DNA of 64,000 nucleotides, from the NCBI GenBank assembly GCA_015956445.1, contig WIUZ02000002.1, positions 1,550,001 to 1,614,000 on the forward strand, written 5' to 3'. Position 1 is the stretch's first letter. Each line of letters opens with the position of its first letter. The notes under the pieces are model-generated. The model saw only the letters and a program-made list of their open reading frames with translations, was not told where the DNA came from and did not search any database. Shown here piece by piece: positions 10,825-42,489 of the stretch. Source of the DNA: Thelephora terrestris. Lineage: Eukaryota > Basidiomycota > Agaricomycetes > Thelephorales > Thelephoraceae. The position numbers and the translations under genes are program-made.

Positions 10825-13341
10825 AGCAGCTGCAGCCCAGTTTTTATAATTATTGGGGTTACAATGGGAGCACTTTTATATTTGACCTGGGTTGTCCTCA
10901 CAATTATAATTGCAACTTTAACCCAGCAAGAATTATAAATGTAGCCTCCCCTTGCCTGACGTCCCATCCATCGTACTGGGTACTGGCCCATTGCTTCGGA
11001 CCCAAGGAATTGATGGGCTGATGGGATATGCCCAGTGCTTCGGGCACATGCTGGTGCCACAACCGTGGGAAATCATTTCCCACGCTCCTGCCCTTTGTTG
11101 CTGACATAGGCTGGTCATGTGACCTACCAAAAGGGGGTAATTTTGATGGCTTATATAAGCAAGTCATGTGACTGAAAAGAGTGGATGTTGATTATATAAG
11201 CAGGTCATATGACTGACCAAAAAAGGAAAGTTTTGATGGCTTACATAAGCAACTCAAAAATGATTTTGGCATTGAATTTCCTTTTTAGGAAATTTTGATG
11301 GCTGATATAAGCAGGTCATGTGACTGAAAAAAGTGGGTGTTGCTTATGTAATCAGGTCATGTGACTGACCAAAAAAGGAAAGTTTTGATGGCTTACATAA
11401 GTGTCTCAAAAATGCTTTTGGAGGGGTCTTTCCCAAAAAGAAATTTCCTTTTTAGGAAATATTTGATGGATTACCAAAAAAGAAAATTTCCCTTTTAGGA
11501 AAGACTTTCCAAAAAAGGCAATTTGATGGCTTATGTAAGCAACTTGAAAATGCTTTTGGCAAAAATTACCAAAAAAAGAAATTATATGCCAGAAAAATCG
11601 GAAAAATGCCAGAAAAATTCTAAAAAATACCGAAAAAATTCCGAGTGAGGGGGGCCGAGCGAAGCGAGGCCTAGGGAGATGGGCGGGGGCAAAGGGTAGG
11701 TGGGGAAACCACCTTTCCGCCCTTTCGTCTCTTTATAGCCCAAGAGACTCATCAGTGCCGTTGCCAAGTAAGGAAGAAGTTACCAAATGCGGAGAACAAA
11801 GCGGGGTTATGGCTTGCTATTGTTCTTCCCGTTATGGGAACACGCCGTAGGCGTGTTCCATCAGAAACGGATAAGGGGCCCGGGCCTTTGTGGTGGATGA
11901 ATGTATTGTGATGCCCCTATCTTAGGGTTCGGATCAGCCAACCCCTATCTGTCACGCTGAAACGCGATCAGTGGAGTTAGAAGCATCAATTCATTACCTA
12001 AGCGTCTCTTTTGACAGTTTCCATCAGAGAAGACTGATGATCAAAAAGAAGAGAAGACGTGATGCGTGATCGGATCAAACTTCTTTGATCCGATCACGCA
12101 TCACGTCTTCTCTTCTTTTTGATCATCAGTCTTCTCTGATGGAAACTGTCAAAAGAGACGCTTAGGTAATGAATTGATGCTTCTAACTCCACTGATCGCG
12201 TTTCAGCGTGACAGATAGGGGTTGGCTGATCCGAACCCTAAGATAGGGGCATCACAATACATTCATCCACCACAAAGGCCCGGGCCCCTTATCCGTTTCT
12301 GATGGAACACGCCTACGGCGTGTTCCCATAACGGGAAGAACAATAGCAAGCCATAACCCCGCTTTGTTCTCCGCATTTGGTAACTTCTTCCTTACTTGGC
12401 AACGGCACTGATGAGTCTCTTGGGCTATAAAGAGACGAAAGGGCGGAAAGGTGGTTTCCCCACCTACCCTTTGCCCCCGCCCATCTCCCTAGGCCTCGCT
12501 TCGCTCGGCCCCCCTCACTCGGAATTTTTTCGGTATTTTTTAGAATTTTTCTGGCATTTTTCCGATTTTTCTGGCATATAATTTCTTTTTTTGGTAATTT
12601 TTGCCAAAAGCATTTTCAAGTTGCTTACATAAGCCATCAAATTGCCTTTTTTGGAAAGTCTTTCCTAAAAGGGAAATTTTCTTTTTTGGTAATCCATCAA
12701 ATATTTCCTAAAAAGGAAATTTCTTTTTGGGAAAGACCCCTCCAAAAGCATTTTTGAGACACTTATGTAAGCCATCAAAACTTTCCTTTTTTGGTCAGTC
12801 ACATGACCTGATTACATAAGCAACACCCACTTTTTTCAGTCACATGACCTGCTTATATCAGCCATCAAAATTTCCTAAAAAGGAAATTCAATGCCAAAAT
12901 CATTTTTGAGTTGCTTATGTAAGCCATCAAAACTTTCCTTTTTTGGTCAGTCATATGACCTGCTTATATAATCAACATCCACTCTTTTCAGTCACATGAC
13001 TTGCTTATATAAGCCATCAAAATTACCCCCTTTTGGTAGGTCACATGACCAGCCTATGTCAGCAACAAAGGGCAGGAGCGTGGGAAATGATTTCCCACGG
13101 TTGTGGCACCAGCATGTGCCCGAAGCACTGGGCATATCCCATCAGCCCATCAATTCCTTGGGTCCGAAGCAATGGGCCAGTACCCAGTACGATGGATGGG
13201 ACGTCAGGCAAGGGGAGGCTACATTTATAATTCTTGCTGGGTTAAAGTTGCAATTATAATTGTGAGGACAACCCAGGTCAAATATAAAAGTCACTCCCTT
13301 TGCTAACAGGAATTAATATATTTTTTGGGCTGCAGCTATTG
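10825..13341. mobile_element. Pal1: giant palindromic (foldback) element
   Basis: Arms 10872-12079 and 12084-13291 are inverted copies around a 4-nt centre (CTTC at 12080-12083). Corresponding positions always sum to 24163, so there is no net indel across 1.2 kb, and identical peptides would be read from both arms. Beyond this, diverged inverted sequence runs to AGCTGCAGCCCA (10828-10839) and its complement (13326-13337). ATGTTTTG occurs directly outside both ends (10817-10824 and 13342-13349), a perfect 8-bp target duplication as in hAT-like insertions. Subterminal sequence has repeated TCATGTGAC and GATGGCTTACATAAGC-like motifs and TTTCCTTTTTAGGAAA-like small palindromes. No transposase is encoded. 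Confidence 0.93.
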
Positions 13342-13764
13342 ATGTTTTGGGCTTCAATGCTAGCTAGGGAGGATCCCAGCGCACCAAACGTAGGTGGGCT
13401 CGTCATTGTTCCCAGGTGCTTGTAACCATGTTGAGGTTCGATGACGGGCGACCAGAGAGGAGACTTAGATCAATAGATGGCAATTTAAATTCGTTACTGT
13501 GGAGAGTTGAATTTGGATTCGGCGGATCAACTAATTGTATCGCACCCGCGTTGACCATCTATCCCGCGCGAAGCCATCCAATAACGATTATTCTGCGGCT
13601 TCACAATGCGTCCTTTCCCACCGCTCCCGTAAAATAGATTGGCCATTCTAGTGTGCGTGACCAGCTGGGGAGGCAACAGGGCTGCCTCGTGGTGTAGCTT
13701 CCCCTCTGTCACACGGCACCGACAAAACCCGCCACTCCTCCCTCAGTCATTCTAAACGCAAGTC
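13342..13764. other. No recognisable gene
   Basis: Sequence between Pal1 and the split gene. Only a short plus-strand frame (13416-13637) without recognisable features. Confidence 0.4.
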
Positions 13765-15169
13765 ATGTCGCCCATCAGTCGTTCCCTCACAAAACTGGCC
13801 CTGCCTCCCAAATTGGCCGCGAATATCGCATCGTTTGGTTGTTTCCTTGTTTCAGCACAACTCAACCCATTGCTCATACCCGCTGCGTTCATAGTGGGCC
13901 AAACAACCAGCGCAGCCACTCTTGCTGGTAACAATTCTTTGGAGGCCGACACTTCCCAGGTAACGGCCATTCGCAATCTCTCACTAGATGTAGTTTTCAA
14001 GCTTGCGAACCATTCACAGCTAGGCCAAAACTCGACCGCGAGTGGCTCGGGACTGAGGGAAAATGTGAGGGTTGCTTTCCTGCAGATAAGTCAGTTTCAC
14101 TGAAAGACTGCCTGAAGCTTATTCAGCTGTCAATCCCTGACAATTCAACGGAAATATATTTCGATCCAGGGACCGGAGAGTGTTACGCAGCTACAGAAGA
14201 GATCGAGAGCGAAAGCGAAAGCGATGATCAAGACAGAACTCTCTTAGACAGTGCGAGCCGGCTTGCGCATCAGGTATGTGGAAGAGGCTTTGCCTTGAGC
14301 TTGGGATTCACTGGCGCACAGTTCCAGGAGTTCGGCGTCCACGACCTTTCACCAACCCACCACTCAACACCGACAACCAGTATTCGTGTGAGTTTGGGTT
14401 ATTTCTTTCGTGAATAAGTGACCCAATATCATCGCAGCACGGCAGAACTCGTTCACGTGTCCACTTCGAGCGCCAACGAAGTCCAGTGTCTGGGACCCAA
14501 CACGAAGGTAGGGGTTCCAACCGCGGTTCACGGGACAGAGGGGTTGGCGATCCGGGCGAACCACCCAGGAGAAGTGCACCGCGAACGCCACGACGAGACG
14601 GCCAAGTAAGTTTTCTTGAAAGATGTAGATCGGTACGTCCGCGATTACATCCACGTTGACTAGGACGGGTGGGTGACAGTGGACGACATAAACAACCTTG
14701 CCGAATCGATAAACCAGGGCTACAAAAGAATCATCTCAATCATCCAGGCCGACTCTCATGGAAATCGCAATGGGGTTGACCTGCATCCAGACAGAGAAAG
14801 TAACAGCGCTCGTCCAACACGCAGGGTCCCACCTGTTGGAAGCACACGTTCCCCTTTTGAGAACGAGCTCTCTGTTGGCTTCCTTTACTCTTTGTGGTCG
14901 CTCAATTACTAATCAGACTGTAGGACCTGATCAGAATCCACATCGATCACTTAATGCCTTCCGCAAAGGCTCATGTAAACACTGTGACTGATGCTGATTT
15001 GGAGGCATTCGATCCCCGGCGAGGCGAATGTTGCACGGCGTCAAATTTTCGGTTCAACCTGGGTGGCACCGCATGGGATGTTTGGAACAAGTCTGCAACG
15101 CGTGTTTTTGTCAATCACTTTCTGGAGAAACACACCCGTTACCTGGCGAATGATAAAGTTGTCCATTCT
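13765..15169 (+). pseudogene. Split gene, 5' part (unknown protein, interrupted by Pal2)
   Basis: A series of plus-strand exons is joined by plausible introns: an acidic block (GTGECYAATEEIESESESDD, about 14195-14240), an Arg/Ser-rich block (HGRTRSRVHFERQRSP), WVTVDDINNLAESINQGYKR, then after an intron near 14880-14930 the block TDADLEAFDPRRGECCTASN followed by FNLGGTAWDVWNKSATRVFV and the last residues before the break, LANDKVVHS. The arrangement of an aspartate-rich 'F-D' block, then WNK and RVF-(V)-FL, is a pattern I recall from large families of uncharacterised basidiomycete proteins. The true start is uncertain. The frame ends within Pal2 at CAC TAG; its continuation lies at 18469 beyond the element. 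Confidence 0.6.
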
Positions 15170-15528
15170 CACTAGTGGTAGTTAACTTTTACTGAGTAAA
15201 GTGTGATAACTGGTCAGATTTCACCCTCAAAGTTATCATGATAACTTTGAGTACTGCTCAACCCATACTCACCCACTGTTTTGGGTTGATGGGAGAGGTC
15301 CCAATTAGGCAGGTGCCGAGGGTGTGGATTGCCTGGGAGTCTGGGTGGGTTTCCTTTTTGGGAATATCCCAGAAAGGAAATATTGATGGCTTATGTAAGC
15401 AATGATGGGAAACAGAATAGATGGAATGTCTATAAAAGGAAATACTATAAAAGAAAATACCATAAGAGGAAATTTGATGGATTACATAATGGGATCATGT
15501 GACTTCCTAAAAAGGAAATTTTGCCTGG

Positions 15529-15674
15529 TATGTTATTTTTACCAAATATGTTATTTTTACCAAATATGTTATTTTTACCAAATATGTTATTTTTACCAAA
15601 TATGTTATTTTTACCAAATATGTTATTTTTACCAAATATGTTATTTTTACCAAATATGTTATTTTTTACCAGAT
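15529..15674 (+). repeat. 18-bp minisatellite in the left arm of Pal2
   Basis: Eight consecutive copies of an 18-bp unit (TGTTATTTTTACCAAATA, last copy variant). The mirror region of the right arm (about 18052-18107) has only three copies, so arm lengths differ by about 90 bp here. An open frame across the array (CYFYQI repeated) is a by-product of the repeat. Confidence 0.9.
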
Positions 15675-15867
15675 TTGTTATTTTTCTAACTACAGCAATT
15701 TCTAAGTATGAGAACTTCCAAATAGCATAATTTTCAAAGATAGTGACCTTTCAATAAATTGATTTTCCAACATTACAATTGGAAGGTCTTCATTTCAATG
15801 AGATTTATGTAAACTTTTCTTTGCCTTTTCTACCATATGATAGAATATGGTTCTGTTTGTAGTCATG

Positions 15868-16545
15868 ACCTAACCTAACCTAAACCGACCCTAACTCAAC
15901 TTTATTTTGTTTTATCTTATCTCACCTAATCCCTAATCTAATCTAATCTACAAGTGTTTCATCTAATCTACCCAAAATAGTCCACCTGACCTAACCTAAC
16001 CTACAGTAAATCCAACCCACTGTAAATGTAATCTACCATAAACATAATCTACGGTAAACATAGTCTACAATAAACATATTCTACGGCAAACATAGTCTAC
16101 GGTAAACATAGTCTACGGTAAACGTAGTCTACGGTAAATGTAGTCTACGGTAAACTTAATCTACGGTAAATGTAGTCTACCATAAACGTAGTCTACGGTA
16201 AATGTAGTCTACCATAAACGTAGTCTACCGTAAACGTACTCTACCATAAACATAATCTACCATAAATTTAACCTAAACCTAACCTAACCTAAACCTAACC
16301 TAACCTAACCTAACCTAACCTAACCTACCGTCAACGTAAACCTAACCTGACCTAACCTACCCTAAACCTAACCTGTCCCAAACCTAAACCTAACCTACCC
16401 TAAACCCCACCCTACAGTAGTCCACCTAACCTTACCTGACCCTGTTCTAAAGTAGCCTTACCCAACCCAATATGTTCTACTCAACCTAACCTAACTAAAT
16501 CTATCTGGACCTACCTGATCTAACCCAGCCTAGCATAACCTAACC
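15868..16545 (+). repeat. Telomere-like CCTAA array, left arm of Pal2
   Basis: Dense CCTAA/CCTAAA units (the purest run is about 16262-16325) flank a block of about 250 bp of degenerate TAAACGTAGTCTACGG-like units (about 16015-16262). The reverse-complement version, TTAGGT/TTAGGTTTAGG, runs from about 17150 to 17865 in the right arm. The unit resembles a fungal telomere repeat but is mostly 5- and 6-mers mixed rather than pure CCCTAA. Confidence 0.85.
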
Positions 16546-17149
16546 TAATCTGCAAAAATGTGAACCTAGCTCAACCTATCCTCACCCAGCCCATTAGTAT
16601 GTAACTTGGTTTATGGGAACACAGGATGAACCACACACTTCCCAACTACAAGCTGACAATTGCTCAAGTGCATCTACTTTGCTGGACCTACAAGCCAGTG
16701 GACCTATAAGCCTATATGCCCACAAACCCGTGGGGACCTATACTCAGTACATGTGACAAGCCATATTCTGTTCCAGACTGCAACCTGGCTGCAACCCAAG
16801 CCCTTTCACCCTGCAGGCTAATGGACTCATCAACTCAAACCCTTACAGATCTGTAGGCCCATAATACACCAACTGGCTAATAGGTCCAGCTAGGTGGACA
16901 AGTTTGGGTTGCAGTCAGGTTGCAGTCTGGAACAGAATATGGCTTGTCACATGTACTGAGTATAGGTCCCCACGGGTTTGTGGGCATATAGGCTTATAGG
17001 TCCACTGGCTTGTAGGTCCAGCAAAGTAGATGCACTTGAGCAATTGTCAGCTTGTAGTTGGGAAGTGTGTGGTTCATCCTGTGTTCCCATAAACCAAGTT
17101 ACATACTAATGGGCTGGGTGAGGATAGGTTGAGCTAGGTTCACATTTTT

Positions 17150-17865
17150 GCAGATTAGGTTAGGTTATGCTAGGCTGGGTTAGATCAGGTAGGTCCAGAT
17201 AGATTTAGCTAGGTTAGGTTGAGTAGAACATATTGGGTTGGGTAAGGCTACTTTAGAACAGGGTCAGGTAAGGTTAGGTGGACTACTGTAGGGTGGGGTT
17301 TAGGGTAGGTTAGGTTTAGGTTTGGGACAGGTTAGGTTTAGGGTAGGTTAGGTCAGGTTAGGTTTACGTTGACGGTAGGTTAGGTTAGGTTAGGTTAGGT
17401 TAGGTTAGGTTTAGGTTAGGTTAGGTTAGGTTTAGGTTAAATTTATGGTAGATTATGTTTATGGTAGAGTACGTTTACGGTAGACTACGTTTATGGTAGA
17501 CTACATTTACCGTAGACTACGTTTATGGTAGACTACATTTACCGTAGATTAAGTTTACCGTAGACTACATTTACCGTAGACTACGTTTACCGTAGACTAT
17601 GTTTACCGTAGACTATGTTTACCGTAGACTATGTTTGCCGTAGAATATGTTTATTGTAGACTATGTTTACCGTAGATTATGTTTATGGTAGATTACATTT
17701 ACAGTGGGTTGGATTTACTGTAGGTTAGGTTAGGTCAGGTGGACTATTTTGGGTAGATTAGATGAAACACTTGTAGATTAGATTAGATTAGGGATTAGGT
17801 GAGATAAGATAAAACAAAATAAAGTTGAGTTAGGGTCGGTTTAGGTTAGGTTAGGTCATGACTAC
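17150..17865 (-). repeat. Telomere-like array, right arm of Pal2
   Basis: Mirror copy of the left-arm array: TTAGGT runs near 17385-17450 and CGTAGACTACGTTTA-like units between about 17450 and 17710. Confidence 0.85.
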
Positions 17866-18461
17866 AAACAGAACCATATTCTATCATATGGTAGAAAAGG
17901 CAAAGAAAAGTTTACATAAATCTCATTGAAATGAAGACCTTCCAATTGTAATGTTGGAAAATCAATTTATTGAAAGGTCACTATCTTTGAAAATTATGCT
18001 ATTTGGAAGTTCTCATACTTAGAAATTGCTGTAGTTAGAAAAATAACAAATCTGGTAAAAAATAACATATTTGGTAAAAATAACATATTTGGTAGAAATA
18101 ACATACCAGGCAAAATTTCCTTTTTAGGAAGTCACATGATCCCATTATGTAATCCATCAAATTTCCTCTTATGGTATTTCTTTTATAGTATTTCCTTTTA
18201 TAGACATTCCATCTATTCTGTTTCCCATCATTGCTTACATAAGCCATCAATATTTCCTTTCTGGGATATTCCCAAAAAGGAAACCCACCCAGACTCCCAG
18301 GCAATCCACACCCTCGGCACCTGCCTAATTGGGACCTCTCCCATCAACCCAAAACAGTGGGTGAGTATGGGTTGAGCAGTACTCAAAGTTATCATGATAA
18401 CTTTGAGGGTGAAATCTGACCAGTTATCACACTTTACTCAGTAATGTAACTACCACAGCTG

Positions 18462-19074
18462 CCGTTCTATGGTAACGGAGAAGACGACTTCGGCCATCGG
18501 AAGTATTATTAGATCCTATCGCCTCAGGGATACGCCTCGCGATGACCTCAAGGTATCCCGAAAGAAGAGAGCCCGAAGGGAGCGAAAACGGACGGTCCGT
18601 ATTTTCTCGGAGATTTTTGCAGTTCTGTCGGTGACCTTGATGCCTTTCATTCAGTTGTTCATCCGCCGGCGTAATCTCACGCGCTTTTACCCAGGCCTTA
18701 TGTCTCAACAGAAGAAGTTAGATCAGCTGGGAGTATCTGGTATGTCTAGCGACGAGACATCGGACAGTGGCGGTACCAAGCAATGGAGGATCTTGGCTCC
18801 TCAGTGGAGGTCAGACGCAGTCACCGCGTGGGTCCGCTACTTCAATGCCCTCTACCACCGAGCCAAGCGAGACCGCCGTTTCAGCAACGATCGTGGGGCA
18901 TTGCCTCGCGTTCGCAAGAACGCCAAGAACTACAGCAACAACACGAAATTTGTGGGTGATTTGCCAAAGAACGCATACCGGCCGCAGTGGTTGAACGAGC
19001 AAATCGACATCGTAAACACCGTGCGGCCCGGCCCCAACGTATCTTGGATGCATGAACCCGCTATAGTCGAGTGA
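18462..19074 (+). pseudogene. Split gene, 3' part (unknown protein, interrupted by Pal2)
   Basis: The open frame from 18469 continues the protein broken at 15169: TTSAIGSIIRSYRLRDTPRD, a basic stretch (KKRARRERKRT), a likely 60-nt intron (GTCCGT to CATTCAG, about 18595-18654), then FIRRRNLTRFYPG, LGVSGMSSDETSD, PQWRSDAVTAWVRYFNALYH and a C-terminal LPKNAYRPQWLNE. The (V/I)xGMSSDE motif and the PxWRS block are features I associate with the same uncharacterised basidiomycete family as the 5' part. In the present arrangement it has no own promoter. The stop at 19072-19074 overlaps a GTGAGT and could instead be an intron start. Confidence 0.6.
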
Positions 19075-19674
19075 GTCACTATTACACATTCAATCAGTCC
19101 GCTTTTGTCTCACAGCAGCTGCAGGATGGTTGTGGGGTCACAGGCAATGCCTGAAAATGCAACTAGAAACGAACGCATGCCCGAGGATTAGGCGAGCCCG
19201 ACAGGATTTTATAAGAACAACCCGGCGATGGTTCCGTAGTCATTATGAATAGATCATATCGTGTCAACGGAGGGTATCAAGCGACCCTAGGCGACTATCC
19301 GCAATTTTAAATTTAATAACATCTGTCGTCGAAGGGTGCGGGTTGCCGAAGTCCAGTGTTCCTGACCCCATAGAGCTTCACGGTGCCTTCCTTAAAAGGC
19401 TCGAAAAATGTGTTCAGAAACGGGTGGAGTCTTAAGATCTTATGGGCAGTCAGTAATGAGTGTTGCAGCTGCCTCAGACTGCCTGGTGTTTATTGAATGT
19501 CACGAGACTGATAGGAACGTTCCCGGAAATAAAAATTATTGAAAAATTGCAGAAGTTTGATATTCGGTCAATCGCCCACATCCTAGAGAGCGACGCCCAG
19601 GTAAGCGCTGGCGTCGCCGATCCATCCCAATCCTATCGCTGAAACAAATTCTGCCCAAGACCATCCACTCCGGT
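19075..19674. other. Upstream region of the Plavaka element
   Basis: No gene recognised. This is probably the 5' end and promoter of the transposon that follows. Terminal inverted repeats for that transposon could not be located by eye. Confidence 0.35.
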
Positions 19675-22600
19675 ATGAAGAAGGTGCTCTGCAGGTGTCG
19701 ATCTCACTGCACGAGATACGATCCAAGCACCGGCATATATGTGGGCCCTGGTGTCCCTATTCCTTCCAAGACGGCTGGACGACACGCTCTCGAGGATCAA
19801 TTAGCTGAAGCCGCCAAAAACTTCATTGGGACCTCCGATCCCAGATCAGATTCTCCCGCTCCGCCTGCTGGCGGCGGTGCTTTCGAGGTTGATGACCCAT
19901 CCCAGGAAGAACTATACGCATTGGAGGCAGAGATTGCCGGAAGAACCGTATGGTCTCCAACCGACCACCCTCTGGTCTTCCTTACCGAGCCGGGCCCCTC
20001 GCAGGGGTTCGTACTTCCGAACCCATCCGAAATCCATCTTTCAAATCACGGTCCCCACGCCTTAGACCCTACCCACCATTCAAATATAGCCTACATTGAA
20101 AACGAAATGAGGCTTTGCGAGATACTTGTCCAGTTGCGTGAACTGCGACATTCAGGGACACCGTTAGAAGATCTGGAGGAGAAAGTTTCCGAGGGGCTTG
20201 CTAGGATGTGGAGGCATAAAGAGGTGGAATGGAGCAGGCGTCGTTACCGGTCGGTAGCGATACATCACGGCATTCCCGTTGTTGAGACAGGTATGTTTCC
20301 GTTTTTAGTCTGGAATGCACGGATCTGATTGCGTTCAGCTGCCTATTTCCAAACGCCTGTACCCACAAACCCCATAATCGCCATTGCGTTATTGACCATC
20401 CTTATCCTCCATCTCTTTTTCCGTGTCCCGCGAAGAGCCACGCTCGTCATGATTGCCGGGTTTCGTTCAATGCTCGCGACAATATCCCAGGAAGAAGGCG
20501 TTCCCACCAGTATTCCAAGCGACCCCAGAACAATCGTTGGCCACTTTGACCTCGACCCTCGTACCGTCTCTCATCTCCAGTGCCCCGCATGTTACGCTCT
20601 TTATACCCACGCAGCCACCGGTAACAGTCCCTCGACTCTTCCAGAAGTCGAACGGTGCACCTTCCGGTCAACACTGACAAGCGAACCATGTAACGTCCCC
20701 TTGTGGACAGAACACCGTGTTGGTGCCCGTACTATCCGCACTCCTCGGAGGAAGTACGTTCACCAAAGCCTCAAAGAGTGGATGGGCCGACTCATAGCGC
20801 AACCTGGTGTGGAGGATATCCTTGATCGTCCACTCGAACGGCCACACACTGATCGTCTCAATGATATCTGGGATTCCCCTGTATTCAGAAATTTCCACGA
20901 TGATGATAAATCCCCTTTTTTCGCAAAGCATGGGGACGAGGCGAGGTTCGCATTTAGTCTCGGAGCCGATAGCTTTCATCCCCTCCATAACCTCGAGGCG
21001 AAGCAGCTCATGAGCGCCACCGCAATCTTCTTGGTCCTGTTAAATTTTCCAGAGGATCAACGTTACAAGTCCAAGAACATGTACCTCGCCGGAGTCATTC
21101 CTGGCCCCGGAAAACCATCCCTTGAACAAATCAATCACGTCCTATCGCTCATTGTGAAGGAACTTCTGGAGTTCTGGAAAGGCGTCTACTTCACTTGCAG
21201 TGCGAAGTTTCCCAACGGTCGGTTTTCCAAAGGCGCGTTGATCCCCCTCGTTTGTGATATGCTGGCCGCTCGACAGATTGCTGGGCTTGGGAGCGTCAAC
21301 TCAAAATTTTTCTGCACCTTCTGCTTGCTAACAATCCAAGAAATCGAGAACCTTGACAAATCGACCTGGCCAGAGCGTCGGTTGTACGAACAGTTGACTC
21401 GGGCGGAGGAGTGGAAGGCATGCCCCAGCGAACGCGGTCGAGAGTCATTGTTCAAGCTCCACGGCATACGGTGGTCCGCCCTTTTGGATCTTCTGTACTG
21501 GAACCCAATCCTGTTTTCCGTCGTGGACCAGATGCATGCTGCTTACCTTGGCCTCTATCAAACCCACTGCAGAAAGCTATGGGGCATCGATCTCTCAGTC
21601 GAAGGCGGCGATGGTACTATCTTGTCCACTCACGAGCCCCCCTCACGGCCAGAAGACCCGGTTCTTGAACACTGGCTGGACCTCATTCGAAGAAACCCCC
21701 CGAACCTGCTAGCACGACTTTCAGCAAAAGGCACACCCAAAAAAGTCTTTTGGCACATCTGTTTCGACAATGATCTACGATATGCCGGCAGCAAAAGTAT
21801 GCTTGCGAAAGCGATCACGGAATGGGTAAGTGGCCCCGTGGTGTCATAGATCGAAAGGCTCAAACGTTTTGGACATAGCGAGCCAAAACGTCCCCCCAAG
21901 ATATCGTTCTCAGGCAGATGAACGATGGCAGAGGTGACGAGACAGGCCAAAATCATAACACCGAGGACGCAGATCGTGTGTTTCAAGAGAGGTATGCACA
22001 CGCAATGAGGATCTTCAAGGAGTACACGGAAGGGGCCGGTTTTATCAACAATGTGACTCGAGACATCCTTTGTGCCATGTGCGAGGCAGAGGACTTGCCT
22101 ACTACTGGATACAAGATTGATTTACTCACGCGGCTCAAGAAATGGGTTTGTGGCCCTAAGATCAAAGCTTGCTTTCACTTACGCCTGGTTTGATCTAGCG
22201 CGAGGAGAACATTCTCCGCCCTGCCCCGAGACAGGAAACCTCACCTCGTGGAGCAGTTTTGGGACGGGACGTCATGGAGGAGGTTTGGAATGATATGAAG
22301 CTGACAGAGCTCCCTTCGTGGATGAGTCCTGCACCCCCAAATTGGGGCACAACTGCAAGGGGGAAGCTAACTGCCGACCAGTGGATGGTTGTCTGCACAG
22401 TCCACTTGCCTGTCACCCTCATAAGGCTCTGGGGTAACCTTAGAGATCGGCGCTTCGAGCTACTCTGCAACTTCATGGATTTGACGTCTGCCATACAACT
22501 TGCAACCCAGCGGTCAATCACAGCACAAATGATCAACGACCACTAACTTCTCATCGTGCGATACTTGAACATGAAACGATTATTCAAGGGAAGCAAAGTT

Positions 22601-28200: not shown

Positions 28201-28387
28201 CTTCTGGCTTCAAGTACGACATCTTCAGCCGCGGCCGATGGTCCATCAATAGTCCGTTCATGTATTTTGTGTACTCAAAGGCAAGCGTTGACTCGCAAGA
28301 GACCCGATCCGCTGCTGACCCGACTCTATCAAGCTCATCACCCGCAAGAGGTTCCCATTTTGCCGCTACAGTTTCCGAGAGGATGGA
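25295..28387. other. Long stretch without a recognised gene
   Basis: Many short open frames on both strands, none recognised. A plus-strand frame at 27702-27911 (RFSIARQLRRNRSLNVEQLL) has coding-like composition but no clear neighbours. CTCAGGC triplication near 25380. Overall it looks like degenerate gene or transposon sequence. Confidence 0.4.
26629..26760. repeat. Degenerate tandem repeat (ACTCGACC...CCGTGCTTC)
   Basis: Several imperfect copies of a unit of about 30 bp containing CGACTCGACC and CCGTGCTTCA follow one another. No coding sense was evident. Confidence 0.5.
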
Positions 28388-28888: not shown

Positions 28889-28932
28889 GGAAGTTTGGTT
28901 GTGAGGGAAAAGCAGCAAGTCAACCGAGATTC

Positions 28933-30077: not shown

Positions 30078-31670
30078 ATGTGGATCTGTCCTAGTCCGCA
30101 CGAACGTTCTGGACAGCGTATGGCTGGCCGGCAGACTCCCGAATCTTCAACCTCCCTCCGGTGGGCCAGGGTAGGTCATTTGTCACACCCACGTACATCT
30201 AAGCCTCGCGCCGTCCAAACAAGGGCTCCCCTACGTCCAACCTCGTCTCACCCAGGTCTCACCCAAACAACATCTGCATGTGTTACCGAGTCTGTCTCTC
30301 CAAGTTGACGGGCACGGCGAATTTTGAGAGGGCCGATCTGTGGGAGAATTCAAACCGCATGAGACAGCAAACGGGTTGTATGTTCTGTACACCTTTGAAA
30401 CTTCCCTCCATGGGTTCTAAAATTGATTTTGTGTTTGCAGGCTGTACTTTAGAATGTTAGGGGTCAAACGTCGAAGCTCCCCACTTTGCGCCGGTTCACG
30501 TTGACTGCAACTGCTGTCGGAAAGATCGAGGAAGGGAAGATTGGTGAGCCCAAGAAACTACAGCCCTCGCAATTCCTTCTCACACCAAAATCGCTCAATA
30601 TCTCTCGCAGCCCATCCAATATCCAAACAGCTTGAGATCAGCTCGCGGTATGCGTCGAACCCGGCAAGTCTTTGAAACAACAACCTATTTCTTATGTTCT
30701 AGCATCGTCATTCCCACTGGCAACCAACAACCTCGACGCGCCATCCCGACCACAGCACCAAGGCGACTCACAATGCCTTCTGACCAGTGTAGGCATCCCA
30801 CGTGCCATCTCTGCTTTGCATTTCGCACATCTCTTCCCATCACCCCACGCCACACCGGATTGCCACTCACCCCGCCCTAGTCCTGCACACCGTATACCTC
30901 AATCGTCCGGGCAAGCTTCCTGGCACTCAGAGCAAATACTTTTCTTCCCGCCTGCTGGATATGGAGCAATCCACCCCGCCAACTCCTTTCAATTACCATC
31001 CTCTCGACTCAAACGCGTGAGACATGCATACGACTCAAAACGACCCCAGCACTGACTTGTAACACAGGATCAATCCCGTTGCAACCCTCCCGGTTGATGC
31101 CCTGACATGTGTCTGTGAACAACTGGAGTCCTCCAGTGCCAAGGATGTCACTATGCTGAAACATGAAGTGAACCAGACCAACTACTCCGCTCGAAGATTC
31201 AACACCCGAAGACCACTCAACTTCTCTCGAGGAAGCTTGAACCCGTTTCTCCTAAGTTTCTCTCCATCACCTGCGGTGGCTCTCCCGGCTTGCGGGTGAA
31301 CCCTAAATTTAGTGATTCGAACGGTCACGACAGTTGTAGCCATCCACCAAGTCCAACTATCACCTCAGACCAGGATCTTGGTTGTCGTGCTCTTTCTTTA
31401 ATGGAGGAGGTTGGTTTCGCAATACCTCACCCACGGAGGTATCTTGTCCTGACCTCATGTTTGCGCTTAACGGTTCTGATGAGTTGTGATCGGACGGTTT
31501 CCCGTAGGTTGTGACTGACAAGTTGCTGATATCAATCGATATCAACCAGGAGAACAGAACACGCCCACCAGTTCCACTGGTCAGGGCAGGTTTCCTCACC
31601 TCTCATATAGATAAATCATTTATAGAACGTCGCTGATAACCGCTAACGAAAATACCCACAATGCCGGCCA
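30078..31670. other. No recognised gene
   Basis: Short, mostly Pro/Ser/Thr-rich frames on the plus strand and nothing recognisable. It could contain further exons of the disordered ORF upstream. Confidence 0.35.
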
Positions 31671-31701
31671 CTACATCCAGCTGTTCCCGCAAGGTGATGG
31701 T

Positions 31702-32877
31702 ATGTTGCCTCGAGGCATTTCATTCAAAATGTCACAAATGATCACGTGGGTACAGTGTCTTTCCACTATCTCTCTCGACCTCAACCTACTCGACATCCTT
31801 TCACTTTTGCAAGCTGGCTTCCGGTCACAAACGCTCGCTCTCCCCTCTCGCGGTCCAAGGTCACGGCCGCCAGAAAGTCGTTTGCCCAAGCAGTCGCACG
31901 AAACCGCAACCGCGAGCGGCTCTGGGTCTGTCGACCAGATACCAGAAGTGGGCACGCACCCCCCAGCGCGCGCTAGGAGAAACTGGTGGCTCCGCATTTA
32001 CCTTTGGCAGTGCTCAAGGTATCGCCATTTTCTCGTCTGTAGAGAATGACTAAGAAATATGTTCTTTCAGCCGCGTGCCGATTCACCTTCTCCTCTCGCC
32101 ACCCGTTCAAGAAAGCTGCCCCGCCCGACGACAACATCGCTCCTCTCGAGAGCGACTGTGTCAGCGTAAACGCTTCAAGCGATATCCCCTCGATGGGCGG
32201 TTCGAGGACCATTGCGATCCCCACATTGTCCAACCCCACGACTCGTGTGTTTTTCCCAATCCGCTCTCCAAGTCTGGCCATTGAGAGGTCCGTGGGAGAA
32301 ATTGTTCCTGCAGATGACCCCATGGACGCGTACAAAGGTACGTTCAGAAGCTCCTTTTGAAAAAATCCAACCACTCACTATTAATATAGACGAGACTGTA
32401 CCTCATGGCTCCAGGTTGCCCTTCGTAGCGATATCTTCTAGGGAGCACTCAATGTATCGATCTCGCAGGCGTGGATCTCGTGGGTCAGACGGATCGTCTG
32501 CCGCTGAGGTCCTTCAGTACCTGGTCAACCCAGATGTTTGAGCCACCAACCCACCCACCGGCGAAGGCACTCAGACTTTCGATCCTATCACTGGTGTCCC
32601 CATACAGCCCCAACATTCACGAACCAGCATCGCAGACATCCGTTTAAACGATATTCCCGAGGATATCGGGAGCCCCACCGGACCAACCGATACTCCCAAC
32701 GGCCTGCATGGAGGCACTGCACCAGGAGTCAGCACGAGGGCTCCTTCCAATCCTCTTCGTCCCATCCGGACCAGGGGTGCTTTCATCATTGGCAATGGTG
32801 CTCCCATCAAGATCGACGACAGCCTAGAGGTCCATTTGAGGGATGGTGCTGATGGGCAGGTTGACTTCATTATCTAA
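31702..32877 (+). pseudogene. Unknown multi-exon protein interrupted by one TGA
   Basis: An exon ending near 32019 (GGSAFTFGSAQ) is joined by an intron of about 50 nt to CRFTFSSRHPFKKAAPPDDN, IPSMGGSRTIAIPTLSNPTT and ADDPMDAYK. A second intron (GTACGT to TATAG, about 32339-32390) leads to DETVPHGSRLPFVAISSREH and AAEVLQYLVNPDV, where TGA (32539-32541) stops the frame. The same frame then stays open for 111 further codons (PPTGEGTQTFDPITGVPIQP ... GAFIIGNGAPIKIDDSLEVH) to TAA at 32875-32877. One nonsense codon thus splits an otherwise continuous ORF. The family is not recognised and the 5' end is uncertain. Confidence 0.5.
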
Positions 32878-33166
32878 AAATGTGTTCGCTTCCACTCCGC
32901 TCGATGTCAGATTTCCTTCGTCCCCTTTTGTATTACATCCACTGCTATCTATGAAGTATCCTGAGTGCTGAAATTTTTCCCTTCCACGGATGTCGTCGTG
33001 TGTGACACTCACAACCAACAGCAGTATGGCCGTGAGGTCGGAAGCGCGTGCCGAGACGTTGAAGAGTTGAGCGATTACCCGACGACCTCCAAACAACACA
33101 ATAGGTAATGTTTAGTAGGCCCAGGCTAGCGTCGTCCTTCTGGCATGAAATGGTCGCTCAATGTTA

Positions 33167-34393
33167 CAGCGAGTTGCAAAACGATAGACGTGTTTTTGAA
33201 AAGACAGGACTGTATTTTTTTGTTTACACTGTGACATATAAACAAAGATATTTGAATTCAAAATCGGACGGGAATCAAAATCGGGTGTCGATGGATGGTG
33301 CCGTGGGACGGCAAACCACGGAGACACTGGGGGCAAGGGGTCAAATACCCAGTGGGTACATGCTGAATACATTGTGATCACAGTCAAAAAGTGATCACAA
33401 TGTGCCCAGTGGGGAAATTTTGAATACATTCAAAATGTGCCAGGCCATGTGTATCCAATGTGCCCACTGTGTACATTTTGATTGTGATCACAATGTACTC
33501 AGCAATGTGATCTCAATGTGCCCAGTGGGGACATTTTGATTGCAATCACAATGTACCCACCAATGTGATCTCAATGTGCCCAGTGGGCACATTTTAAATT
33601 CTTTCACAAAGTGCTCAGCAATGTGTTCACAATGTACCCAGTTCAGTACATGATGGTTTCTTTCACAATGTTGTCCACAATGTGTCCAGCATGTGCCTGA
33701 GCCACTCATTCAAACTTCTTTCACAAAGTATCCAGTGATGTGTTCACAATGTGTACAGCCATATACATGATGATTTCTTTGAGAATACATGGTGAAATTG
33801 AACAATATTGTGATCACATTGTGATTACTTCAAAAAGTACCCCCTGGGGACATTATGGACACATCACTGGATACTTTGTGAAAGAAGTTTGAATGAGTGG
33901 CTCAGGCACATGCTGGACACATTGTGGACAACATTGTGAAAGAAACCATCATGTACTGAACTGGGTACATTGTGAACACATTGCTGAGCACTTTGTGAAA
34001 GAATTTAAAATGTGCCCACTGGGCACATTGAGATCACATTGGTGGGTACATTGTGATTGCAATCAAAATGTCCCCACTGGGCACATTGAGATCACATTGC
34101 TGAGTACATTGTGATCACAATCAAAATGTGCCCAGTGGGCACATTGGATACACATGGCCTGGCACATTTTGAATGTATTCAAATTTTCCCCACTGGGCAC
34201 ATTGTGATCGCTTTTTGACTGTGATCACAATGTATTCAGCATGTACCCACCGGGTATTTGACCCCTTGCCCCCAGTGAGAGCACTCAGTTCAATGGGCCT
34301 GAGGTCAGAAACCTTTGTTTACGTGTCACGGTGTAAAAAAAAAAAAACTATCCTGTCTTTTCAAAAACACGTCTATCGTTTTGCAACTCGCTG
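33167..34393. mobile_element. Older inverted-repeat element hosting a nested MITE
   Basis: CAGCGAGTTGCAAAACGATA at 33167 and its complement ending at 34393 start two inverted arms of about 65 bp, including GTTTTTGAAAAGACAGGA. The arms flank the CACTG MITE at 33325-34277. Without the MITE and one 3-bp duplication, the element would be only about 270 bp long. No clear target duplication was found outside the arms. A poly-A run of about 12 lies in the right arm near 34337. Confidence 0.7.
33325..34277. mobile_element. CACTG-ended palindromic MITE, 953 bp, nested
   Basis: Ends CACTGGGGGCAAGGGGTC and its complement, with AGA on both outer sides (33322-33324 and 34278-34280) as a 3-bp target duplication. 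Arms of about 420 bp are inverted copies without net indel: positions sum to 67602. The centre of about 100 bp is at roughly 33750-33850. The interior is built of short variants of AATGTGCCCAGTGGGCACATT, itself a small palindrome, and is essentially free of CpG. It is non-coding and is a larger relative of the element at 28388-28888. Confidence 0.92.
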
Positions 34394-34701
34394 CATCACA
34401 CCCGGAACGACATCGTCATGATCCTTTGTCGACAGTGAACATTCGATCGCGTGGCCCGCAGCTTAGTAAATAAACATAGATACTGGCTACATCCCAGTCG
34501 GAACACGTCCAAGTTCTTTCCATGGAGAGTTCGAATATATACGTTCGAATATATATTCAGCAATTTTGAGGCCGGACTTCACAAAAAAAATCGTGTTCGA
34601 ATGACCACCTGCTGCCAGACTAAGTTGACGTTTTCAATTTTGCCTGCAGACTTGTGACTCAGTGTGACTTGCCCTGATCCGCCAAGGATTCAACGGCTAT
34701 C

Positions 34702-35489
34702 ATGCAGAAACAGCCTGCTGCAGCTCACGAGAGCGACACGCAGACCAGGCGTACTCAAGACCTTCGCGACCGGCCTTCTCACCCCGCCTTCGATAGGCTC
34801 GAGGAGATGGAGGTCAAAGAACTGCAAGAGGTGAGTACACGTCCTGTCCTCTCCGGGGTGGGCTAGTTCTCACGAACTTGTAATCGTTCAGGACCACGAC
34901 ACACTGAAGAAGGGTTTCAACCGGCTCCTCGAAATGCACATCGAATCCGCGGGGAAGATCATGACCCTGGAGAAGGACTTCGATCAGTGCCGCGAGCTGA
35001 AGGTGCAACTCGAAGCGCGAGTTGAACATCTCGAAGCCCAGATTATCGTGGCAAACAAAGCGAACTCTATGCTGCGCAAAGTAAGTAAATCCATTCTACC
35101 TGCTTACTTGTTGACTTATTCGCCTATAGGAGGTTTCCTCGATCATTTTTCCGTGGTTTCGCTCCCAATTAACTCCCTTTTCAGGTCTTCAACGAAGTCA
35201 GCGAAAAACTTAAATGTATGATTTGCCTCGGATTGTTCGCCATACCGTATAGGTACGGACTTCTGCCTCCAAGTACCTCATTCACATTTAACCAGCCTGT
35301 TGTTCTAGCCTCGACTGCCGCCACGTGTATTGCGGGCCCTGCTTGGTCGAATGGTTCACTTCCCAGAGAGCCACAACCTGCCCTGCGTGTCGCGTCGACA
35401 GCGTCAACCTACCTCAACCAGTAGTCCTTATTAGATGTAGATGCACATTACCACGGTATCTCGTATTTGTGCAATCTAGCATGCGGTAG
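34702..35489 (+). CDS. RING-finger (C3HC4) protein with coiled coil
   Basis: Exons 34702-34830, 34892-35080, then 35185-35252 (possibly preceded by a 3-nt exon at 35130-35132), and 35309 to the end, with GT-AG introns in consistent phase. The N-terminal half is charged and helical (KGFNRLLEMHIESAGKIM, ELKVQLEARVEHLEAQIIVA), typical of a coiled coil. The C-terminus has a RING: CMIC, then CRHVYCGPC, then CPAC, giving all eight metal ligands in C3HC4 order. This suggests an E3 ubiquitin ligase of the cytosol or nucleus. After NLPQP the frame enters Pal3 (from 35419) and stops at 35487-35489, so the final 23 codons or so are supplied by the palindrome. The native tail may be lost. Confidence 0.72.
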
Positions 35490-38400
35490 TTTGTGCAATG
35501 CTATAGGCATTGCAATTGGGCCTGCAGGTTGTGCAATGCCGACGATATGGTACTACTGGGTGACTGGGTCAGCTTATATAAGCCAGTCATGTGATTTTCC
35601 CAAAAAGGAAATTTTTATGGCTGACATAAGCAGGTCATGTGACTGAAAAAAGTGGATGTTGCTTATGTAATCAGAGCATGTGACCGACCAAAAAAGGAAA
35701 GTTTTGATGGCTTACATAAGCAACTCAAAAATGATTTTGGCATCAAAAATTCCTTTTTAGGAAATTTTGATGGCTGACATAATCAGGTCATGTGACTGAA
35801 AAAAGTGGGTGTTGCTTATGTAATCAGGTCATGTGACCGACCAAAAAAGGAAAGTTTTGATGGCTTACATAAGCGTCTCAAAAATGCTTTTGGAGGGGAC
35901 TTTCCTAAAAAGGAAATTCCTTTTTAGGAAATATTTGATGGATTACCAAAAAAGGAAATTTTGATGGCTTACATAAGCAACTCAGAAATGCTTTTGAAAA
36001 TTTTCCTAAAAAGGAAATTATATGCTAGAAAACTCGGAAAAATGCCAGAAAAATCCTAAAAAATACCGAAAAAATTCCCACAGGTCTGGAAAGTGCTCAA
36101 AATTGCAAATAAATACCAGAAATATTTAAATAAATCATTTTTCTGGCTGGATAAATCCTGGAAAAATCCGGAAAAATTACCAGAAATTCCAGAATATGTA
36201 TAAGTATTTTATAAAAATTATTCTGATTTTTTTTTGTTCATTAAATAGCTTGTAATTTTGATATTAATGTATTTTCTGCTCCAAAAAATTAATAAAAGTT
36301 GATAATTACAAATATATTCATAGTCTTCATTATATCATAAAATACAGACCTGTTTGTGGTCATAAACTACCCCTATAACTGGTCCTAGACCTAACCTAAC
36401 CTAACCCTAACCCTAACCCTAAACCTAACCTAACCTAAACCTAACCTAGTACAAAACCTAAACCTAAACCTAACCTGCCCTACACCTAACCTGGCCTAGT
36501 TTGGCCTTATCTTATCTTATCTTATCTTATCATGTCTCACCTAGCCTAAACCTAACCTAACCTAGCCTAGCCTAACCTGACATAGTCCACTTAACCTAGT
36601 CCACCACAGATCACCCAACCTAACCTGACCTAAAGTGGTCCACCTGACCCAGCCTGATGCAACTTGACTTGATCTTATCTAATCAGCTGTCATCTTATCT
36701 GCCCTTAATCTAAATGCCTTAGCTGACCAACGTCTAACCCAACCTCACCCAGCTCACCAGCACATGACTGGGCCACAGGAACACACTATGAGCTGTACCA
36801 TCCCATACCCTGTATCCAACTGTCACTCAAGCACAACAACTGTGGTGGACCTACAAGTTAGTGGACCTACAAGCCCACAGACCCACAACTTTAGACTGCT
36901 CACTCAGTGGAGACACCTGTTATCCAACCTCACCCATGTACTGCTCTCATCCTGTGTTCTGTGCCAGACCCCAACTTCACCACAACTCAAGATCAGCCGG
37001 GTGGCTGAACCTACAAGCCAGATTGATATAGACCACCAGTTGTGCATCCCTGGATTGGTAGGCCTGAGAGTACATGGTCCAGCCAGGTGGCTGAACTTGA
37101 GTTGTGGTGAAGTTGGGGTCTGGCACAGAACACAGGATGAGAGCAGTACATGGGTGAGGTTGGATAACAGATGTCTCCACTGAGTGAGCAGTCTAAAGTT
37201 GTGGGTCTGTGGGCTTGTAGGTCCACTAACTTGTAGGTCCACCACAGTTGTTGTGCTTGAGTGACAGTTGGATACAGGGTATGGGATGGTACAGCTCATA
37301 GTGTGTTCCTGTGGCCCAGTCATGTGCTGGTGAGCTGGGTGAGGTTGGGTTAGACGTTGGTCAGCTAAGGCATTTAGATTAAGGGCAGATAAGATGACAG
37401 CTGATTAGATAAGATCAAGTCAAGTTGCATCAGGCTGGGTCAGGTGGACCACTTTAGGTCAGGTTAGGTTGGGTGATCTGTGGTGGACTAGGTTAAGTGG
37501 ACTATGTCAGGTTAGGCTAGGCTAGGTTAGGTTAGGTTTAGGCTAGGTGAGACATGATAAGATAAGATAAGATAAGATAAGGCCAAACTAGGCCAGGTTA
37601 GGTGTAGGGCAGGTTAGGTTTAGGTTTAGGTTTTGTACTAGGTTAGGTTTAGGTTAGGTTAGGTTTAGGGTTAGGGTTAGGGTTAGGTTAGGTTAGGTCT
37701 AGGACCAGTTATAGGGGTAGTTTATGACCACAAACAGGTCTGTATTTTATGATATAATGAAGACTATGAATATATTTGTAATTATCAACTTTTATTAATT
37801 TTTTGGAGCAGAAAATACATTAATATCAAAATTACAAGCTATTTAATGAACAAAAAAAAATCAGAATAATTTTTATAAAATACTTATACATATTCTGGAA
37901 TTTCTGGTAATTTTTCCGGATTTTTCCAGGATTTATCCAGCCAGAAAAATGATTTATTTAAATATTTCTGGTATTTATTTGCAATTTTGAGCACTTTCCA
38001 GACCTGTGGGAATTTTTTCGGTATTTTTTAGGATTTTTCTGGCATTTTTCCGAGTTTTCTAGCATATAATTTCCTTTTTAGGAAAATTTTCAAAAGCATT
38101 TCTGAGTTGCTTATGTAAGCCATCAAAATTTCCTTTTTTGGTAATCCATCAAATATTTCCTAAAAAGGAATTTCCTTTTTAGGAAAGTCCCCTCCAAAAG
38201 CATTTTTGAGACGCTTATGTAAGCCATCAAAACTTTCCTTTTTTGGTCGGTCACATGACCTGATTACATAAGCAACACCCACTTTTTTCAGTCACATGAC
38301 CTGATTATGTCAGCCATCAAAATTTCCTAAAAAGGAATTTTTGATGCCAAAATCATTTTTGAGTTGCTTATGTAAGCCATCAAAACTTTCCTTTTTTGGT

Positions 38401-38668
38401 CGGTCACATGCTCTGATTACATAAGCAACATCCACTTTTTTCAGTCACATGACCTGCTTATGTCAGCCATAAAAATTTCCTTTTTGGGAAAATCACATGA
38501 CTGGCTTATATAAGCTGACCCAGTCACCCAGTAGTACCATATCGTCGGCATTGCACAACCTGCAGGCCCAATTGCAATGCCTATAGCATTGCACAAACTA
38601 CCGCATGCTAGATTACACAAATACGAGATACTGTGGTAATGTGCATCTACATCTAATAAGGACTACTG
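35419..38668. mobile_element. Pal3: giant palindromic element with telomere-like arrays
   Basis: The left end CAGTAGTCCTTATTAGATGT and the complement of the right end match, and corresponding positions of the arms sum to 74087 throughout, so 1.57-kb arms lie without net indel around a central spacer of about 100 bp (roughly 36994-37094). Arms contain repeated TCATGTGAC/CTTACATAAGC modules shared with Pal1, an AT-rich block with CCAGAAAAAT-like units, and CCTAA/CCCTAA plus CTTAT arrays as in Pal2. The spacer contains GGTCCAGCCAGGTGG, close to the Pal2 spacer (GGTCCAGCTAGGTGG). No target duplication was found; an LTR abuts the right side five bases away. Non-coding. Confidence 0.92.
36388..36480 (+). 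repeat. Telomere-like CCTAA/CCCTAA array, left arm of Pal3
   Basis: Contains three consecutive CCCTAA units, the common fungal telomere repeat, at about 36404-36421 within a longer CCTAA array. The mirror copy (GGGTTAGGGTTAGGGTTAGG) is at about 37666-37690. Confidence 0.9.
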
Positions 38669-42468: not shown

Positions 42469-42489
42469 GAACAACCAATCGGGAGGAAT

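What the first reader, a model, noticed from the sequence alone, without database searches (positions are those of the whole stretch)
10825..38668. Pal1-3 form one unnamed foldback family with exchangeable modules
The three elements have different ends but share interior modules: repeated TCATGTGAC and CTTACATAAGC motifs, CCAGAAAAAT-type AT blocks (Pal1, Pal3), CCTAA arrays and closely related central spacers (GGTCCAGC(C/T)AGGTGG in Pal2, Pal3). Regular spacing of TCATGTGAC in the subterminal part could be binding sites for an unknown transposase. I know no described fungal element with this design.
Basis: partly seen in the sequence, partly recalled or inferred. Interest (0 to 1): 0.85.

Follow-up and report, generated by a model that had tools for sequence, protein, structure and literature searches.

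The report
Mutator-like foldback transposon family in fungus
Three near-perfect DNA palindromes in a fungal genome are gene-less members of one large jumping-DNA family; a relative with the same arms carries a Mutator-type transposase that probably moves them, and others carry a reverse transcriptase.

Summary
Pal1 (10824-13341), Pal2 (15170-18461) and Pal3 (35419-38668) are real and related; their shared motifs lie far above chance. They belong to a foldback family with roughly 100 loci in this 40.6 Mb genome. Exact target duplications flank 15 of 38 copies with both flanks read, fourteen of 7 bp and one of 8. One copy (C2:262655-272844) has 1,236-bp, 100% identical arms around a MULE (Mutator-like) transposase; its arm matches Pal1's arm interior at 87% over 997 nt. 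Separately, four close copies of an open reverse-transcriptase frame sit between family arms, with at least two, probably three, kinds of ends. Pal1's centre is exactly a 20-base hairpin found at the inner edge of the coding elements' arms. Arms within a copy are 99-100% identical in 16 of 17 copies tested; own partner is nearest in 15 of 17. Best reading: Mutator/Foldback-like elements (compare nematode Tm1), moved in trans by the MULE enzyme. Seven bp lies outside the published MULE range (8-11), so formal membership is withheld. The reverse-transcriptase passengers are the most novel part.

The parts
10824..13341 (.). Pal1: non-autonomous foldback element, ends GAGCAGCTGCAGC / CAATAGCTGCAGC
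   Evidence: Arms 100%; its outer arm 10872-11090 has strong matches at 8 other loci (15 strong of 19 hits); exact 7-bp target duplication
10817..10823 (.). target duplication ATGTTTT, left of Pal1
13342..13348 (.). target duplication ATGTTTT, right of Pal1
11136..12079 (+). Pal1 left-arm interior: 87% identical (997 columns) to the arm of the MULE-coding element; from 11288 on also 86% (846 columns) to the arm of an RT-coding element
12072..12091 (.). centre of symmetry GGATCAAA-CTTC-TTTGATCC; the same hairpin sits unduplicated at the inner edge of the arms of the MULE element and of an RT element
11110..11421 (+). TCATGTGAC / CTTACATAAGC modules, partly a 152-bp tandem duplication
15170..18461 (.). 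Pal2: foldback element, ends CACTAGTGGTAGT / CAGCTGTGGTAGT; flanks CCATTCT / CCGTTCT (6 of 7)
16269..16406 (+). CCTAA array, left arm of Pal2 (mirror 17297-17461)
16818..16885 (.). 68-nt central spacer of Pal2
35419..38668 (.). Pal3: foldback element, ends CAGTAGTCCTTATTAGATGTAG; no target duplication (CCTCAAC / CAAAATG)
35606..35893 (+). TCATGTGAC / CTTACATAAGC modules, 153-bp tandem duplication, left arm of Pal3
36384..36492 (+). CCTAA / CCCTAA array, left arm of Pal3 (mirror 37595-37703)
   Evidence: 37 of 45 perfect CCCTAA arrays of the genome lie in family loci
37012..37075 (.). 64-nt central spacer of Pal3, shared with other copies

Best explanation
Pal1-3 are non-autonomous foldback (long inverted-arm) DNA transposons. 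A Mutator-like transposase coded by a rarer full-length relative with the same arms probably recognises their ends and moves them by cut-and-paste, leaving 7-bp target duplications. Pal1-type copies are internal-deletion derivatives: the gene region was lost and the two arms were joined at a 20-base self-complementary hairpin that marks the inner edge of each arm. After that, the two arms of a copy are kept identical by arm-to-arm gene conversion (or self-templated repair), and recombination between copies swaps ends and flanks. Shown: family, arms, 7-bp duplications, MULE gene inside family arms, hairpin match, within-copy arm identity. Inferred: that this transposase does the moving, the deletion step, the conversion step, the exchange mechanism.
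For: About 105 loci, 97 with paired inverted ends (rough count from positions). Exact 7-bp (one 8-bp) duplications in 15 of 38 copies with both flanks read: CAGTAGT ends 8 of 26, Pal1-type 4 of 6, Pal2-type 3 of 6. L031+L032 (C2:262655-272844): 1,236-bp arms 100% identical; MULE domain E=6.3e-9, above its cut-off; SWIM finger E=0.018, below its cut-off; DGTFG, TDTD, CRFH and NHLESFN motifs present (their catalytic role is recalled). No inverted pair with a side in the gene region at E up to 1, so the gene does not look like a separate nested TIR transposon. Its arm matches Pal1 223-1208 to 313-1256 at 87% and Pal3 at 84% over 485 columns. The hairpin is in both its arms and at Pal1's centre. 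Arms within a copy 99-100% in 16 of 17; own partner nearest in 15 of 17. L011 and L015 carry the two sides of one 7-bp target, which fits recombination between copies.
Against: The duplication is 7 bp; the published MULE range is 8-11 (PMC6446971 passage; 8-10 in PMC5225508). Only one MULE-coding copy was seen, and it has no target duplication; neither have the two RT-coding copies whose two flanks I read. RT-coding copies (four close ones) outnumber the single MULE copy seen. 23 of 38 copies lack an exact duplication. The source of the Pal2/Pal3 centre (CCTAA arrays, spacer) was not found in any coding element read.
Confidence: 0.7

Rival explanations
1. The reverse transcriptase is the engine. 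The arms are the repeats of a Penelope-like retroelement (layout arm, inverted partial arm, RT, arm); self-primed (snap-back) DNA synthesis at short inverted repeats makes the palindromes, which the RT machinery inserts.
For: Four close RT copies, all open, all between family arms in the same order. RT core under purifying selection: dN/dS 0.066 over 490 codons, one pair of copies. The layout matches the Penelope layout in PMC3846280 (direct pLTRs plus an adjacent inverted pLTR, palindromes read as self-priming). Two junctions lie at pre-existing short inverted repeats: hairpin GGATCAAA..TTTGATCC and CATCA..TGATG.
Against: Nearly constant 7-bp duplications and fixed ends suit a DDE transposase better. 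No endonuclease domain found in 1,027 aa, though some 130-140 N-terminal codons are unseen. No RT-coding copy has a target duplication (0 of 2 read on both sides). The RT search found only five loci, so nearly all palindromes hold no RT. A MULE transposase is present in the same shell. The Pal1 junction is also explained by deletion at the 20-base repeat.
Confidence: 0.15
2. An unrelated transposase acting in trans, such as a P/Galileo-type enzyme (7-bp duplications, long foldback arms); the MULE and RT genes are both passengers.
For: Galileo has 7-bp, rarely 8-bp, duplications and long palindromic arms (PMC4168063 passages). Both coding types could be cargo.
Against: The search for the P-type RNase H family in this genome gave nothing, but its 14 control genomes were silent too, so this is weak. 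In large copies read, nested elements and no transposase were seen: ten frames of L009, L010 and L011 have no Pfam match; L029, L030, L043 and L049 were judged from alignments and frames by eye.
Confidence: 0.12
3. Not mobile elements: inverted duplications or assembly artefacts.
For: 23 of 38 copies lack exact duplications; in L009 the inverted repeat runs past the element ends into at least 814 bp of flank at 100%.
Against: 15 exact duplications at unrelated sites, fixed termini, about 105 loci, divergent copies.
Confidence: 0.03

Closest known systems
Tm1, Mutator/Foldback family of root-knot nematodes (PMC3169594: abstract, passages and section 9 read)
   Same: Composite long inverted arms with repeated motifs, two different terminal motifs (one per end), many gene-less copies plus rare transposase copies of MULE (Phantom-like) type; a copy with the same terminal motif at both ends lacks a target duplication, as L035 does here
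   Different: Tm1 duplications are 8-10, mostly 9 bp; its two arms average 93% identity, 5 of 61 copies at 100%; here 7 bp, and 99-100% in 16 of 17 copies. The words 'reverse transcriptase' do not occur in its main text
Galileo (P superfamily, Drosophila; PMC4168063 passages read)
   Same: 7-bp duplications, foldback arms that grow by tandem repeats, gene-less copies with two arms only
   Different: Transposase is P-type; here the only transposase found in the shell is MULE-type
Penelope-like retroelements (PMC3846280, PMC6431247, PMC11167929 passages read)
   Same: RT-coding copies here have direct and inverted arm copies around one RT gene; palindromic junctions
   Different: No GIY-YIG domain seen; PMC3846280 states that fungal PLEs are endonuclease-deficient and do not share this layout; no hammerhead reached threshold (best Hammerhead_HH10 27.7 bits against 75, in L018); the PLE label rests on motifs that I recall, not on a tree or structure
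MULE superfamily in general (PMC6446971, PMC5225508 passages read)
   Same: MULE transposase domain with a weak SWIM finger, long arms, gene-less members
   Different: 7-bp instead of 8-11 bp duplications; arms of 1.2 kb and more against up to 640 bp in the table passages that I saw; 'reverse transcriptase' does not occur in the main text of PMC6446971

Membership tests
MULE (Mutator-like) superfamily | MULE transposase domain in the autonomous member | tested here: met
   PF10551 E=6.3e-9, 36.6 bits, cut-off 27.6, in L031 inside family arms; one copy only
MULE (Mutator-like) superfamily | Long terminal inverted repeats (over 100 bp) | tested here: met
   1,208-nt and 1,593-nt arms in Pal1 and Pal3; 1,236 nt in the MULE copy
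MULE (Mutator-like) superfamily | Target duplication of 8-11 bp | tested here: not met
   7 bp in 14 and 8 bp in 1 of the 15 copies with exact duplications; MULE copy itself has none
MULE (Mutator-like) superfamily | Transposase placed among MULE clades by a tree | not tested
Foldback class | Element consists mainly of long inverted arms with subterminal repeats, little or no loop | tested here: met
   4-, 68- and 64-nt spacers in Pal1-3, repeated modules
P/Galileo superfamily | 7-bp target duplication | tested here: met
P/Galileo superfamily | P-type transposase in a member | tested here: inconclusive
   PF21787 none in this genome, 14 controls silent too
Penelope-like elements (RT-coding copies only) | RT of the PLE clade | tested here: inconclusive
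   RVT_1 E=2.3e-6, 27.9 bits, just below its cut-off 29.6; weak NCBIfam hits to retron and DRT reverse transcriptases (best E=3.4e-4); no PDB sequence match; structure prediction never ran (11 tries)
Penelope-like elements (RT-coding copies only) | ORF between direct repeats with an adjacent inverted repeat | tested here: met
   arm, inverted partial arm, RT, arm in 4 of 4 close copies; the inverted piece is only 34-49 bp in the C56 copy
Penelope-like elements (RT-coding copies only) | GIY-YIG endonuclease (absent in EN-deficient PLEs) | tested here: inconclusive
   none in 1,027 aa; some 130-140 N-terminal codons unseen

The most novel reading that the evidence does not exclude
One terminal shell, two engines: the same long arms are used both by a Mutator-like DNA transposase element and by a Penelope-like reverse-transcriptase element under purifying selection. 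The RT makes foldbacks by self-priming at short hairpins in the arms, the transposase spreads them, and the family is a working hybrid of retroelement and DNA transposon.
Probability: 0.2. Interest if true: 0.85.

Novelty: new variant of a known kind. Interest (0 to 1): 0.55.

Why it matters
It joins gene-less kilobase palindromes, hard to assemble and usually left unnamed, to a candidate transposase and a precise birth scar (a 20-base hairpin at the arm's inner edge). It shows the two arms of single copies evolving in concert, a testable case of arm-to-arm conversion in young palindromes. A selected reverse transcriptase riding in the same arms would, if it acts on them, link retroelement self-priming to the open question of how foldback elements arise. 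The copies seem to recombine with each other and so could reshape the chromosomes.

Tried and rejected
Rejected: large copies as autonomous elements in general. L009, L010, L011, L029, L030, L043 and L049 (6.3-9.4 kb) hold nested unrelated elements: TGTCAG...CTGACA elements in six of the seven, a different element in L011 and a second one in L049; their 5-bp duplications were read by eye in L009, L010, L029, L030, L031 and L043. Ten frames of L009-L011 have no Pfam match. Rejected as sole answer: the RT as engine, after the MULE copy turned up. Considered and dropped: self-cleaving ribozymes in the arms; no Rfam family reached its threshold in L018, L019, L033, L034, L050, L051 or window 10800-13400, and the best hits (MIR7723, mir-399, mir-1253) are long hairpins. 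TCATGTGAC as a proven transposase site: no test was possible. Telomere origin: 45 CCCTAA-array hits, 37 within family loci, none within 53 kb of a contig end, so the arrays are family modules in this assembly; a telomeric origin is neither shown nor excluded. P-type transposase: silent search with silent controls. PDB sequence searches of the RT and of the MULE frame: no match. PHROGs and NCBIfam repeat 'reverse transcriptase' only weakly. Ten literature searches listed no fungal foldback family of this design in the titles, abstract openings and passages that I saw; curated repeat libraries were not available. Not read: C10:226306, C12:136866, C16:608655, C23:2669771 and C56:1986918; C1:3326341 only in part (L018).
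Full report
OBSERVATION. The shared words are far above chance: TCATGTGAC occurs 18 times in the window, 16 of them inside the three elements, against a shuffle mean of 0.6 (20 shuffles). Pal1 and Pal3 align over 544 columns at 84% in the subterminal part; Pal2 and Pal3 share the CCTAA arrays and a short part of the centre. Two corrections: Pal1 has no CCTAACCTAACC, and the regular spacing of TCATGTGAC follows from a 152-153-bp tandem duplication.

FAMILY. The genome (G000, 40.6 Mb, 60 contigs; organism not named; NACHT, WD40 and tnp2 domains in the window, suggest a basidiomycete, which is inference) holds many relatives. The end CAGTAGTCCTTATTA occurs 50 times on each strand (control 0). Pal1's outer arm has 19 hits, 15 of them strong; Pal2's outer arm has 72, 38 of them strong, with 40 of 74 candidates scored. 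Merging positions copied from six searches gives about 105 loci, 97 of them with paired inverted ends, 61 of these 97 between 2.9 and 4.7 kb apart. The count is rough: only six places were used, lists were cut at 40 scored candidates or 100 places, and neighbouring copies can merge.

ENDS AND TARGET SITES. Termini are fixed: CAGTAGT..., GAGCAGCTGCAGC.../CAATAGCTGCAGC..., CACTAGTGG.../CAGCTGTGG.... Exact target duplications flank 8 of 26 copies with CAGTAGT ends (21 rows, plus the RT copy on C59 and Pal3, L030, the MULE copy and the RT copy of L033/L034), 4 of 6 Pal1-type and 3 of 6 Pal2-type copies: 15 of 38, fourteen of 7 bp and one of 8. Left out: a Pal1-type pair in L038 that spans two elements, and L012, L018, L037 and L043, where one end was not found. 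Pal1 has ATGTTTT on both sides; Pal2 has CCATTCT/CCGTTCT; Pal3 has none. The Pal1-type and Pal2-type copies read carry one of each of two end variants, except L035, which has the same variant on both sides and no duplication (in L029 one variant is slightly altered). The nematode Mutator/Foldback family Tm1 has the same exception, for which its authors suggest a crossover (PMC3169594).

TWO CODING MEMBERS. The large copies L009, L010, L011, L029, L030, L043 and L049 proved to be palindromes with nested unrelated elements (ten frames of the first three without Pfam match). Two kinds are different. (1) L031+L032 (C2:262655-272844, 10.2 kb): arms of 1,236 bp, 100% identical, ends CAGTAGTCCTTATC, one nested element, and between them two frames with a MULE transposase domain (E=6.3e-9) and a weak SWIM finger. 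No inverted pair at E up to 1 has a side in the gene region, so the gene does not look like a separate nested transposon. Its arm matches Pal1's arm interior over 997 columns at 87%, and Pal3's over 485 at 84%; the outermost 222 and 152 nt do not align. (2) A reverse transcriptase of more than 1,000 aa has five loci in the genome, all open; four are 91-100% alike, and all four lie between inverted family arms: C23:711158-728995, C23:about 2189530-2196600, C56:2481263 to the contig end, and C59:1544967-1551901. The surroundings of the fifth (C19, 48%) were not read. In the direction of the RT the order is arm, inverted partial arm, RT, arm in 4 of 4, the inverted piece being only 34-49 bp in the C56 copy. 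Over 490 codons of the RT core two copies differ by 37.5 synonymous and 9.5 non-synonymous changes, dN/dS 0.066: selection has kept the protein. The ends differ: CAGTAGTAC in two copies, CAGTAGTCC in one, and in the fourth an arm that starts near CTGTGGTAG, its exact terminus unseen. Ends are exchanged around one core.

HOW PAL1 AROSE. At the inner edge of the arms of an RT element and of the MULE element stands an unduplicated hairpin, (C)GGATCAAA-GAAG-TTTGATCC (z -4.2 for 111 nt around it on one strand; one base differs in the MULE copies). Pal1's centre of symmetry is this hairpin with its 4-base loop. Because the 20-mer is self-complementary, the copies in the two arms are nearly direct repeats, so a deletion between them removes the gene and leaves arm-hairpin-arm, which is Pal1. 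Snap-back synthesis at the hairpin would give the same product; the sequence cannot tell the two apart. One RT element (L034) has a second palindrome centred at another short inverted repeat, CATCA...TGATG, and the 580-bp copy L047 is centred on a third one in the subterminal module. The centre of the Pal2/Pal3 class (CCTAA arrays, 64-68-nt spacer) recurs in many copies read, but its unduplicated source was not found.

ARMS EVOLVE TOGETHER. In 17 CAGTAGT copies, up to 1.6 kb of the two arms was aligned (gaps ignored): 16 are 99.1-100% identical within the copy (9 at 100.00%), one (L025) is 67%; the nearest other copy is 75-99.8%; in 15 of 17 the own partner is nearest, not in L022 and L025. 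With a shared centre this points to arm-to-arm conversion or self-templated repair rather than separate origins; homogenisation by the assembler is not excluded. L011 and L015 on one contig carry the two sides of one 7-bp target (among 42 flanks about 0.1 such match is expected by chance, my estimate), and their flanks continue each other in the nested element of L049: this fits recombination between copies. A plain reciprocal inversion would also need matching left flanks, which they lack.

MECHANISM AND FILING. The best-supported reading is a foldback DNA-transposon family moved in trans by the MULE transposase of its coding relative. It works like Mutator/Foldback elements such as Tm1. I do not file it formally in the MULE superfamily, because the target duplication, tested, is 7 bp and not 8-11 (PMC6446971, PMC5225508 passages). 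The main rival gives the engine to the reverse transcriptase, whose layout equals the Penelope layout described for rotifers (PMC3846280), where palindromic junctions are read as self-priming; that paper says that fungal Penelope-like elements lack this layout. The Penelope label for this RT rests on motifs that I recall (DKNLG, IPKIHK, YxDD context) and on layout; no tree or structure could be made.

LIMITS. Of the seven papers I saw passages, and for PMC3169594 also the abstract and one section.

Noticed in passing
window 33325-34277: A fourth palindrome (428-nt arms, 97-nt spacer, 58-bp tandem units with GTGATC and CCCAGTGGG) of an unrelated family; related stretches are nested in L009 (66-70% to the window copy), which in turn matches L018 at 64-69%.
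   Followed up: partly
window 38674-45875: A 7.2-kb element with interrupted inverted ends of about 1.3 kb (pieces 93-95%) that abuts Pal3; parts of the same family flank the palindrome in L021. Its interior has TCATGTGAC twice, the second about 17 nt upstream of a TATA-like stretch.
   Followed up: partly
L010:3287-6610, L029:2292-5592, L030:2587-5883, L043:3830-6751, L031:2398-5322: Abundant 2.9-3.3-kb elements TGTCAG...CTGACA with 5-bp duplications (by eye); 286 + and 296 - matches of their end pattern in the genome (control 0 and 1). Palindromes and these elements insert into each other.
   Followed up: partly
window 18445-21849: A tnp2 (Transposase_21, E=1.8e-9) frame directly beside Pal2, perhaps a CACTA-type element hit by Pal2.
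   Followed up: no
L009:1-2457 and 6834-9290: The inverted repeat runs past the element ends into at least 814 bp of flank at 100% identity, so the flanks are inverted copies of each other: a larger inverted duplication or an assembly artefact.
   Followed up: no
C1, C2, C3, C8, C12, C13, C23, C56, C58, C59, C60 of G000: All 45 hits of CCCTAACCCTAACCCTAACCC lie at least 53 kb from a contig end; 37 are inside loci of this family.
   Followed up: partly
L033/L034, joined 12370-17290: A palindrome of 35-bp CCCATGGGTTGTACAA units with CTAAC arrays nested in an RT-coding element, beside a nested LINE whose poly(A) end abuts the RT frame (borders by eye).
   Followed up: no
C56:2487480-2487500 of G000: The contig ends inside the arm of an RT-coding element, 49 bases before its expected end: an assembly break at a long inverted repeat.
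   Followed up: no
window 34700-35418: By eye, Pal3 sits at the 3' end of what looks like a RING-finger gene; no domain search was run on it.
   Followed up: no
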